Shown piece by piece: positions 34,055 to 36,292 of a DNA stretch of 64,000 nt; the first letter of the stretch is position 1, and each line of letters opens with the position of its first letter. The translations under genes and the position numbers were made by a program. Source of the DNA: Nostocales cyanobacterium Centralia_MAG_434 (GTDB taxonomy: Bacteria > Cyanobacteriota > Cyanobacteriia > Cyanobacteriales > Nostocaceae); NCBI GenBank assembly GCA_021324415.1, contig JAJPJF010000355.1, positions 1-64,000 of the forward strand. Reading direction: 5' to 3'. The notes beneath the pieces were generated by a model. That model saw only the letters and a list, made by a program, of their open reading frames with translations. It was not told the origin of the DNA and ran no database searches.

Positions 34055-34182
34055 ATGTATTTTGTTGTTCCTGAAGACCTTAAGGTTGAAGGACTTTCAA
34101 AATCCAGGCTAGCAAATCTATGCATGATGCTGAATTGGCACGCTTCTTGTCAACATATAATTAGGAATTTGAGGAAAAAACT

Positions 34183-34275
34183 GTGCCAATAATTAAAATA
34201 CCAAGACATTATCTCGTGTCTCAGGATGAAGATTCAATCACGGTAGATATACCAGAGTCAATGCTGTTACCGTGA
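34183..34275 (+). pseudogene. 5' fragment of a small gene split by the insertion sequence
   Basis: GTG start with GAGG 8 nt upstream. It encodes about 30 residues starting MPIIKIPRHYLVSQDEDSI and ending ESMLLP, with the stop supplied by the inserted element. The putative remainder is at 36107-36292. No family recognised; its size suggests a small antitoxin-like or DNA-binding protein, which is a guess. Confidence 0.5.
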
Positions 34276-34277
34276 CG

Positions 34278-34321
34278 TTCTCCCCCGTTAAGCCTGCGGC
34301 TATAACGGGGGCTTCTCAGGG
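34278..34321 (-). ncRNA. Predicted right-end omega RNA (reRNA) 3' region
   Basis: In IS605 elements the guide RNA of TnpB overlaps the 3' end of tnpB and the right-end hairpin, and its guide is the flank. Here the minus-strand hairpin 34281-34311 follows the tnpB stop directly. The 5' extent cannot be read by eye. The guide would start at about 34266 and run to lower coordinates (CAGCATTGACTCTGGTAT). Confidence 0.45.
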
Positions 34322-35581
34322 TTAAAATAGAGATAGTTGTGCTCCATGATAACCCCAAGCTTCCGATCTCACAGGCTGGGTATCCCCTAAGCCTCCATCG
34401 GCAGACACGATAAGCCCCACCGCGTTTAATGCACGCTGTAAAATATTACGAGCGGCATTCTCGTCTCTATCCAGCACTGCACCACATTTATGACATTCAT
34501 GAGTGCGAATAGATAGTGTTTTCGGTACTTTTGCACCACAATTTGAGCATTCCACCGATGTACCATAAGGGTTTACTTTAACAACATGGATGCCGCGTTT
34601 GACCGCCACTGCTTCCAACTTGTCAATGAAACTTCCCCAAGCAACATCTAGGATTGATTTACCCAAACGTGTACGTGCTAGACCGCGAATATTTAAAGAT
34701 TCAACTGCAATTAACTCATGCTGTTTAACCAGTTTATGTGCTGTGTTGTAATGAAAATTCTCTCGAATTCTACCAACACGTTGATGAATTCGAGCAATCT
34801 TGTTTTGTTGCTTGTTGTAGCCAGCAGAACCCTTTTGTTTGCGTGCTAAAAATCGTTGCTGACGAGCTAGATGTTTTTGTGCATTCCTGTATGGTTTTTG
34901 CACTGGTAGTGTTTGACCATCTGATGTGGTGAGAAATTCCTTTAAACCAACATCAACCCCGACCACTGATTTAACGTGTGATAGCGGTAGTAGTTCGGGA
35001 ACTGAACTATCCTCCATTTGCACACAGCAATACCAGCCATCTGCTTTACGAACTACGGTGCATGTTTTTAACGTAAAACCATCAGGTATGGGTCGATGCA
35101 TAACTACTGGCATCTCTCCGATTTTCGATAGTTTCAATACACCGTTATTTAAGAATGCTCCAGCCTTTGCACAGTTCATCCGAGGGTAAACGAATGAGCG
35201 TAACTCCCCTGATTTTTTGAACTTGGGTCGTCCACCACGTAACCCGGATTTATCTGGAAACAACCACCTCTGCCAAGCTTTATTAAGTCGCTGCAAGTTG
35301 ACTTGCTGTGACTCAGCGTAAATGTTTTTGTATTCGGGGAATAGTTCTTTTGTTTCCTTTAAAGCAGCTTGCTGTGTGTAGTAGTTAACTTTTTCTGGAA
35401 TATCCCCAATCGGTTCACTGACGATGGAACATCTATCAATTGAGCATCTCGTCCTATGCAACCAATCTAAACGTTGCCCCAAAGCATAATTCCAGTGACG
35501 GCGCAGCAATTCTAGAATGTGCAACATCACTGATTCTTGTTCGGGAGTTGGTTTAATTCGGTAGCAATAGGTTAGTATCAT
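34322..35581 (-). CDS. tnpB: RNA-guided endonuclease TnpB
   Basis: 419 aa, full length. An N-terminal helix-turn-helix/wedge region (YCYRIKPTPEQESVMLHILELLRRHWNYAL) is followed by a RuvC-like nuclease with catalytic residues D210 (GVDVGLKEF), E294 (AVESLNIRGL) and D373 (LDRDENAARNI). A CxxC...CxxC zinc finger (CSNCGAK ... CHKCGA) lies between the last two. All catalytic positions are intact, so it should be active given its guide RNA. It is transcribed away from tnpA, toward the element's right end. Confidence 0.93.
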   Translation of the reverse strand: MILTYCYRIKPTPEQESVMLHILELLRRHWNYALGQRLDWLHRTRCSIDRCSIVSEPIGDIPEKVNYYTQQAALKETKELFPEYKNIYAESQQVNLQRLNKAWQRWLFPDKSGLRGGRPKFKKSGELRSFVYPRMNCAKAGAFLNNGVLKLSKIGEMPVVMHRPIPDGFTLKTCTVVRKADGWYCCVQMEDSSVPELLPLSHVKSVVGVDVGLKEFLTTSDGQTLPVQKPYRNAQKHLARQQRFLARKQKGSAGYNKQQNKIARIHQRVGRIRENFHYNTAHKLVKQHELIAVESLNIRGLARTRLGKSILDVAWGSFIDKLEAVAVKRGIHVVKVNPYGTSVECSNCGAKVPKTLSIRTHECHKCGAVLDRDENAARNILQRALNAVGLIVSADGGLGDTQPVRSEAWGYHGAQLSLF

Positions 35582-35611
35582 AAATAGAAATATAGCATTT
35601 ATTGTCTACAA

Positions 35612-36025
35612 ATGCGCGATAATTACGAAAGAGGTTTCCGCTCTGTTTACACTCTTACCGTCCACACAGTTTTTGTGACGAAATACCGACGTAAAATAAT
35701 TAACGCTGAAATACTGAGTCGATTAAAAGAAATATTTCAGCAAACATGCGAAAAATGGGGGTGTCACCTTAAAGAGTTCAACGCTGAAGCAGATCATGTT
35801 CACATGTTGATTGACTTCCCTCCACAGGTTCAAATTAGTAAATTAATTGCTAACCTAAAAACTGTTTCCAGTCGTCTTATCAGAAAAGATTTTGCAAATC
35901 ACCTTGAGCGTTACTATCGTAAACCCGTGTTCTGGACTGGCTCGTATTTTGTAGCGAGTTGTGGTGGTGTTACGATTGAACAGTTAAAAAAGTATGTCGA
36001 ACAGCAATCATCCCCTAATCTATAA
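35612..36025 (+). CDS. tnpA: IS200/IS605 family Y1 transposase TnpA
   Basis: 137 aa, normal length. HUH motif ADHVHMLID with H62 and H64, and catalytic Tyr128 in EQLKKYVEQQ. It excises and inserts the single-stranded element using the subterminal hairpins. Start ATG 35612, only 30 bp from the divergent tnpB start, so the promoters overlap. No disruption seen. Confidence 0.94.
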   Translation: MRDNYERGFRSVYTLTVHTVFVTKYRRKIINAEILSRLKEIFQQTCEKWGCHLKEFNAEADHVHMLIDFPPQVQISKLIANLKTVSSRLIRKDFANHLERYYRKPVFWTGSYFVASCGGVTIEQLKKYVEQQSSPNL

Positions 36026-36106
36026 TGATTCGCTGCGCTCAATTATTTATTTTGCGGTAATTCCCCACCCGTTATACCCCGCAGGGTTAACGGGCGACCC
36101 CTTACC

Positions 36107-36292
36107 GCATTAAGTTGGAAAAAAGATTATGAAAAAATTACTAAAGCTAAAGGAATCTTAAAGGATAAGAAAGAAGCAATCCTTGCTCATTTAGAGACTC
36201 TTCGTCAGGAATGGGATGAATGATTTAAGACTGCCATCAAACCAGGTTGGTTGTTCAGTGAATTTTCTGAAGAACTTCAAAAACTGCGTTAA
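36107..36292 (+). pseudogene. 3' fragment of the gene split by the insertion sequence
   Basis: An open frame resumes right after the element (ALSWKKDYEKITKAKGILKD..., 38 codons), is cut by TGA at 36221-36223, and continues in the same frame for 22 codons (FKTAIKPGWLFSEFSEELQK...) to TAA at 36290. Joining it to the 5' fragment across the shared TTACCG gives a one-base frame shift, so the gene was already decaying or decayed later. Confidence 0.5.

What the first reader, a model, noticed from the sequence alone, without database searches (positions are those of the whole stretch)
34240..36107. TnpB element with readable TAM, guide and empty site
Both ends of the IS200/IS605 element contain TTACCG, so the uninterrupted site can be rebuilt. 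On the minus strand the left-end flank is CGGTAA and the right end is followed by CAGCATTGACTCTGGTAT. By the established logic of IS605 TnpB (TAM equals the left-end target, guide equals the right flank), this TnpB should use a GGTAA-like TAM. All three RuvC residues (D210, E294, D373) and the TnpA HUH/Tyr are intact, so this may be an active RNA-guided system with an undescribed TAM.
Basis: partly seen in the sequence, partly recalled or inferred. Interest (0 to 1): 0.6.

Follow-up and report, generated by a model that had tools for sequence, protein, structure and literature searches.

The report
CCAA-targeting TnpB transposon in a cyanobacterium
This is an intact cyanobacterial jumping gene with an RNA-guided DNA cutter whose recognition motif is most likely CCAA, not the GGTAA first proposed, and its relatives suggest that one amino acid of the cutter reads the last letter of that motif in step with the transposase's own DNA guide.

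Summary
The IS200/IS605 element is real and looks intact: tnpA (HUH, Tyr), tnpB (RuvC D210/E294/D373, zinc cysteines) and a covarying omegaRNA. The element is 34272-36114. On the minus strand it reads TTTTTTCCAA | CTTAATG...GAACGTCAC | GGTAACAGCATTGACTCTGG, so the predicted TAM is CCAA and the guide starts GGTAAC. The two TTACCG words are unrelated: one is a chance junction of element end and flank, the other an arm of the left-end stem. Four tests agree: uninterrupted relatives, restored reading frames, dozens of independent insertions, and TnpA's four-base DNA guides (GGGT for CCAA; GAAG for TCAC). Beyond the finding, TAM base -1 tracks TnpB residue 71 (ISDra2 S56): Q with A, K with G, A/S with T, E with C, in 128 of 131 distinct TnpBs. 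All 9 independent phylogenetic contrasts in which the residue differs agree, and the TnpA guide base usually switches too. In the sister clade residue 71 is the only one of 381 columns that separates the three target classes. No cleavage was tested; whether CCAA is already recorded in ISfinder could not be checked.

The parts
34272..36114 (-). whole IS200/IS605 element (1843 bp), written LE to RE on the minus strand
   Evidence: Both ends conserved in relatives with unrelated flanks; empty-site relatives; restored ORF
36115..36118 (-). left-end target CCAA = predicted TAM (preceded by T in this copy; weak T/C preference in relatives)
   Evidence: CCAA before the element in dozens of independent sites; matches the TnpA guide rule
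36097..36100 (-). left TnpA DNA guide GGGT, directly 5' of the LE hairpin
   Evidence: IS608 pairing rule; guide and target covary across relatives
36053..36109 (-). LE structure: inner hairpin plus an outer stem (GCGGTAA/TTACCGC) that encloses the guide; the right-hand TTACCG of the finding is one arm of it
   Evidence: Fold; outer stem covaries: 240 paired cells against 167 +/- 9 shuffled in 40 distinct left ends
35612..36025 (+). tnpA, Y1 HUH transposase, HVH 62-64, Y128
   Evidence: Pfam Y1_Tnp; nearest solved relative IS608 TnpA; motif
34322..35581 (-). tnpB, 419 aa, RuvC D210/E294/D373, zinc cysteines 345/348/363/366
   Evidence: predicted fold nearest ISDra2 TnpB
35369..35371 (-). tnpB codon 71 (Gln), proposed reader of TAM base -1; aligns with ISDra2 S56
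   Evidence: structural contact of S56 from PMC10097598
34272..34425 (-). omegaRNA scaffold, overlapping the 3' end of tnpB
   Evidence: 23 covarying pairs in 21 relatives, 0 of 500 shuffles as high
34282..34311 (-). RE hairpin, preceded by right TnpA guide GAAG (34312-34315)
   Evidence: Conserved in relatives
34272..34275 (-). RE cleavage site TCAC (last four bases of the element)
   Evidence: Conserved in almost all copies with a recognised right end, flank diverges right after; predicted by guide GAAG under the IS608 rule
34252..34271 (-). predicted TnpB guide GGTAACAGCATTGACTCTGG (right flank)
   Evidence: Follows directly from the RE boundary; 3' guide from the flank as in ISDra2 (PMC8612924)

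Best explanation
An intact, probably mobile IS200/IS605 element. TnpA excises and inserts it as single-stranded DNA 3' of CCAA, which it chooses by pairing with the element's own GGGT guide next to the left hairpin (right end: GAAG with TCAC). The tnpB transcript yields an omegaRNA (34425-34272) whose 3' end, GGTAACAGCATTGACTCTGG, is copied from the right flank. TnpB loaded with it should cut the empty donor site CCAA|GGTAACAGC... left by excision, so that repair restores the element. Shown by comparison: boundaries, guide-target covariation, omegaRNA covariation, catalytic residues. Inferred: RNA-guided cleavage with a CCAA TAM, and the homing role. In addition, TnpB residue 71 (ISDra2 S56) most likely reads TAM base -1 (Q-A, K-G, A/S-T, E-C), so that the TnpB residue and the TnpA DNA guide base switch together when an element changes target.
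For: Element ends and CCAA in independent copies; empty-site relatives and frame restoration; TnpA guide rule met at both ends and covarying with the target, 81 CCAA plus 31 CCAT loci consistent; omegaRNA covariation; intact catalytic residues. Residue 71 against TAM base -1: 71 of 73 and 57 of 58 distinct TnpBs in two clades, 4 and 5 concordant and no discordant independent contrasts, homologous to the ISDra2 residue that contacts base -1.
Against: No RNA, excision or cleavage data. The TAM is read from the TnpA target, and a TnpB TAM could be longer or slightly shifted. Only two copies in this genome, 92% identical, so no sign of recent jumping. Three exceptions to the residue rule (L136, L017, L281); in the CCAN clade columns 94 and 97 separate the classes as well; the tree of that clade is a quick one.
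Confidence: 0.85

Rival explanations
1. One reading: TTACCG at both ends is the target, TAM is GGTAA and the guide is CAGCATTGACTCTGGTAT.
For: TTACCG is present at both places.
Against: Relatives end at ...GTCAC, not at CGGTAA, and share CCAA rather than GGTAA before the left end; the joint is 8 bp too long and breaks the host ORF; the TnpA guides predict CCNA and TCNC.
Confidence: 0.02
2. The element is a fossil, or TnpB has been recruited for another job (for instance a TldR-like RNA-guided repressor) and no longer cuts.
For: Only two copies, 92% identical, in this genome.
Against: Both tnpB copies have open frames, RuvC triad intact, tnpA present, both ends and guides obey the pairing rule. 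TldRs have lost the RuvC triad (general knowledge, not tested here).
Confidence: 0.12
3. The residue 71-TAM correlation is hitch-hiking: residue 71 follows TnpB ancestry or another partner, and another residue reads base -1.
For: In the CCAA/CCAT clade columns 94 and 97 separate the classes equally well; few independent contrasts.
Against: In the TTAN clade column 71 alone of 381 separates three classes; the E-C class appeared only after the rule had been formed; the homologous ISDra2 residue touches base -1.
Confidence: 0.15

Closest known systems
ISDra2 (Deinococcus radiodurans) and its TnpB, PDB 8h1j/8exa/8bf8
   Same: TnpB fold (Z 22.5), RuvC triad, omegaRNA overlapping the 3' end of tnpB, guide from the right flank, TAM equal to the left-end target (PMC8612924, PMC10097598)
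   Different: About 30% identical; TAM TTGAT there, CCAA predicted here; S56 there, Q at the same column here
IS608 (Helicobacter pylori) and its TnpA
   Same: TnpA is its nearest solved relative; tetranucleotide targets chosen by a DNA guide 5' of each hairpin (PMC5934647); the same pairing rule predicts both ends here
   Different: Targets TTAC/TCAA there, CCAA/TCAC here; here an outer stem encloses the left guide
Other IS605-type TnpBs used as tools (ISAam1, ISYmu1, ISDge10, SfaTnpB)
   Same: 4-5 nt TAMs (TTTAA, TTTAT, TTAT, TTAC; PMC12908284, PMC12781874)
   Different: None of those seen has a CCAN TAM; the residue code predicts Q, A/S, A/S and E at the S56 position, which could not be checked here

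Membership tests
IS200/IS605 transposon | Y1 HUH transposase with HUH motif and C-terminal Tyr | tested here: met
   Pfam Y1_Tnp 1.5e-43, HVH 62-64 and Y128
IS200/IS605 transposon | Subterminal hairpins, no target duplication, insertion 3' of a target kept at the left end | tested here: met
IS200/IS605 transposon | Guide tetranucleotide next to each hairpin pairs with the cleavage site | tested here: met
   GGGT-CCAA and GAAG-TCAC fit the IS608 rule and covary in relatives
TnpB RNA-guided nuclease | RuvC D/E/D triad and zinc-ribbon cysteines | tested here: met
   NCBIfam guided_TnpB 5e-82
TnpB RNA-guided nuclease | Structured omegaRNA at the right end with guide from the flank | tested here: met
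   Covariation; flank read-out by boundary. Expression not tested
TnpB RNA-guided nuclease | TAM-dependent RNA-guided double-strand cleavage | not testable with these tools
   Needs an assay
TldR (TnpB-derived repressor) | Loss of the RuvC triad | tested here: not met
   Triad intact

The most novel reading that the evidence does not exclude
TnpB carries a one-residue, four-letter code for TAM base -1 (Q-A, K-G, A/S-T, E-C at the ISDra2 S56 position). It switches in step with a single base of the transposase's DNA guide, so elements change target by paired changes in a DNA guide and a protein residue; TAMs of uncharacterised TnpBs become partly predictable and perhaps reprogrammable.
Probability: 0.72. 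Interest if true: 0.75.

Novelty: new member of a known kind. Interest (0 to 1): 0.6.

Why it matters
The element itself is a new member of a well-known kind, with a more GC-rich predicted TAM (CCAA) than the IS605 TnpBs seen in the papers read. The coupling found on the way bears on an open question: TnpA reads its target with a DNA guide and TnpB reads the same sequence with protein, so how do the two stay matched when the target changes? The data suggest a one-base, few-residue joint switch, which can be tested with one TAM library and a handful of point mutants.

Tried and rejected
GGTAA TAM: rejected by relatives. A CTTAA TAM (my first reading of the left junction): rejected because the right end stops at TCAC and the guide rule gives CCAA. 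An unrestricted scan for any guide-hairpin-target triple was far too unspecific (g4 paired c4 in 54 of 146, reversed control 50 of 184), and a looser two-family scan gave many false left ends; both were dropped for homology-based left-end models built from element sequence only, so that the target bases stay unbiased. The guide read-out was spoiled by a careless pattern (AAGG inside AAGGGGT) and is not used. Rfam: no convincing match. Copy 2 empty site: left flank not conserved. A third GAGAACGTCAC in the genome has no hairpin or element around it, so it is chance. The AlphaFold model is fair overall but residues 45-87 are poorly predicted, so it cannot place Q71. Guide target elsewhere in the genome: best other matches have 3 mismatches.

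Full report
Observation. TTACCG does occur at 34267-34272 and 36102-36107, but the word occurs 24 times on the two strands of the window. A second copy of the element lies in the same genome at C155, 92% identical.

Boundaries. Relatives with unrelated flanks align up to ...GAGAACGTCAC at the tnpB-distal end and then diverge at once; at the other end nearly all share CCAA just before the element starts. Eight near-identical copies in Cyanothece sp. BG0011 with a readable left end sit in different sites and all follow CCAA. The element is therefore 34272-36114, preceded on the minus strand by TTTTTTCCAA and followed by GGTAACAGCATTGACTCTGG.

Empty sites. The element interrupts a small ORF which in another Nostocales genome directly precedes a PIN-domain protein, so it is probably a VapB-like antitoxin gene. 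In BG0011 the joints at CCAA are also in frame in three host genes, one of which reads as a Fur-like protein by eye.

TnpA guide test. In IS608 the guide AAAG pairs with TTAC and GAAT with TCAA (PMC5934647): guide base 1 pairs with target base 2 and guide base 2 with target base 1, as the paper states; guide base 4 with target base 4 I read off the published tetranucleotides. Here GGGT, directly 5' of the left hairpin, predicts CCNA, and GAAG, 5' of the right hairpin, predicts TCNC; CCAA and TCAC are observed. Relatives with GGGA or GGTA have CCAT instead: 81 loci GGGT/GGTT with CCAA, 31 loci GGGA/GGTA with CCAT, against three others, two of which are one false hit fetched twice (loci of one element fetched by two routes are counted twice here). 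This supports the boundaries independently of the empty sites.

omegaRNA. The last 154 nt of the element on the minus strand (34425-34272) form a conserved structured RNA that overlaps the end of tnpB: 23 pairs in 21 relatives, 99.8% of cells paired, 73 cells with changes on both sides against 20 after shuffling (0 of 500 as high), and collapse when partners are slid by one column. Some relatives carry indels that appear to shift the tnpB frame while the RNA is kept. No Rfam family matches.

Left-end structure. The left hairpin is enclosed by an outer stem that covaries across 40 distinct left ends (240 paired cells against 167 +/- 9 after shuffling).

Proteins. The RuvC triad and zinc cysteines are invariant in relatives. 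The AlphaFold model is nearest to ISDra2 TnpB (8h1j, Z 22.5) and ISFba1 TnpB. TnpA is nearest to IS608 TnpA.

TAM code. While comparing CCAA and CCAT elements, one TnpB column stood out: residue 71 is Q in CCAA and A or S in CCAT elements. It aligns with ISDra2 S56, which with Y52 contacts TAM base -1 in the cryo-EM structure (PMC10097598). MAFFT and hhalign against a D. aquaticus TnpB, 84% identical to ISDra2 over the compared part, place Y67, Q71 and Q93 on D. aquaticus positions 58, 62 and 86. Those correspond to ISDra2 Y52, S56 and Q80 with the offset of 6 between the two proteins; the offset is exact at Q80, and for 52 and 56 it rests on an ungapped stretch that I know only from memory. 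On a tree of 126 TnpBs, 75 of them with a CCAA or CCAT target, TAM base -1 changed four times and residue 71 changed with it in 4 of 4 independent contrasts. Only columns 71, 94 and 97 of 419 have disjoint residue sets. Targets were then read with left-end models built from element sequence only. Among CCAN elements 71 of 73 distinct TnpBs fit. In the TTAN sister clade (about 43% identical) K71 goes with TTAG, Q71 with TTAA and E71 with TTAC, in 57 of 58 distinct TnpBs, and guide bases C, T and G go with -1 G, A and C in 45 of 47. The E-C class had not been seen when the rule was formed. There the contrasts were 5 concordant, 0 discordant and 1 in which the residue does not differ (L281), and residue 71 was the only one of 381 columns that separates the three classes, L281 left out. 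Together 9 to 0 among informative contrasts; my own sign-test arithmetic gives p = 0.004. A Nostoc element with S at this position appears to use TTGAT (read by eye).

Caveats. All of this is comparative. The clade-1 tree is a quick one, four of its TAMs were read by eye, and shared ancestry inflates raw counts. Three exceptions remain: L136 (Q, CCAG), L017 (tnpB frameshifted near residue 71, flank TCAT) and L281 (K and guide C, but flank TTAA). Whether TnpB cuts, and with exactly which TAM, needs the assay. Whether CCAA is new could not be settled, because ISfinder and several key papers were not in reach; in the papers read no CCAN TAM was seen, and no paper found stated the residue code.

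Verdict. The corrected TAM is CCAA and the guide starts at GGTAAC. The more interesting result is the apparent joint switching of the transposase's DNA guide and TnpB residue 71.

Noticed in passing
34180-34271 and 36115-36224: The element sits in a small antitoxin-like ORF; in a relative (L037) the intact ORF is followed by a PIN-domain gene, which was not seen downstream here.
   Followed up: partly
left ends of L074, L017, L193, L230, L235, L271, L279: The left arm of the LE hairpin appears replaced by a near-perfect inverted copy of the right arm, which erases the TnpA guide. It looks like template-switch correction of a quasi-palindrome and should immobilise the element.
   Followed up: no
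34089-34153: A stretch of about 65 bp recurs at 77-88% identity, often in several copies per genome, in many relatives; a dispersed repeat or a shared gene end.
   Followed up: no
whole genome G000, for example C442:28320-29462 (L246): 36 matches to the TnpB zinc domain in one genome; the C442 copy belongs to the K71/TTAG clade.
   Followed up: no
3' end of tnpB in L106 and L109: A one-base insertion near the 3' end appears to shift the TnpB tail out of frame while the omegaRNA pairs are kept.
   Followed up: no
L136: Okeania hirsuta copy flanked by CCAG despite guide GGGT and Q71: a mutated flank or an off-target insertion.
   Followed up: no
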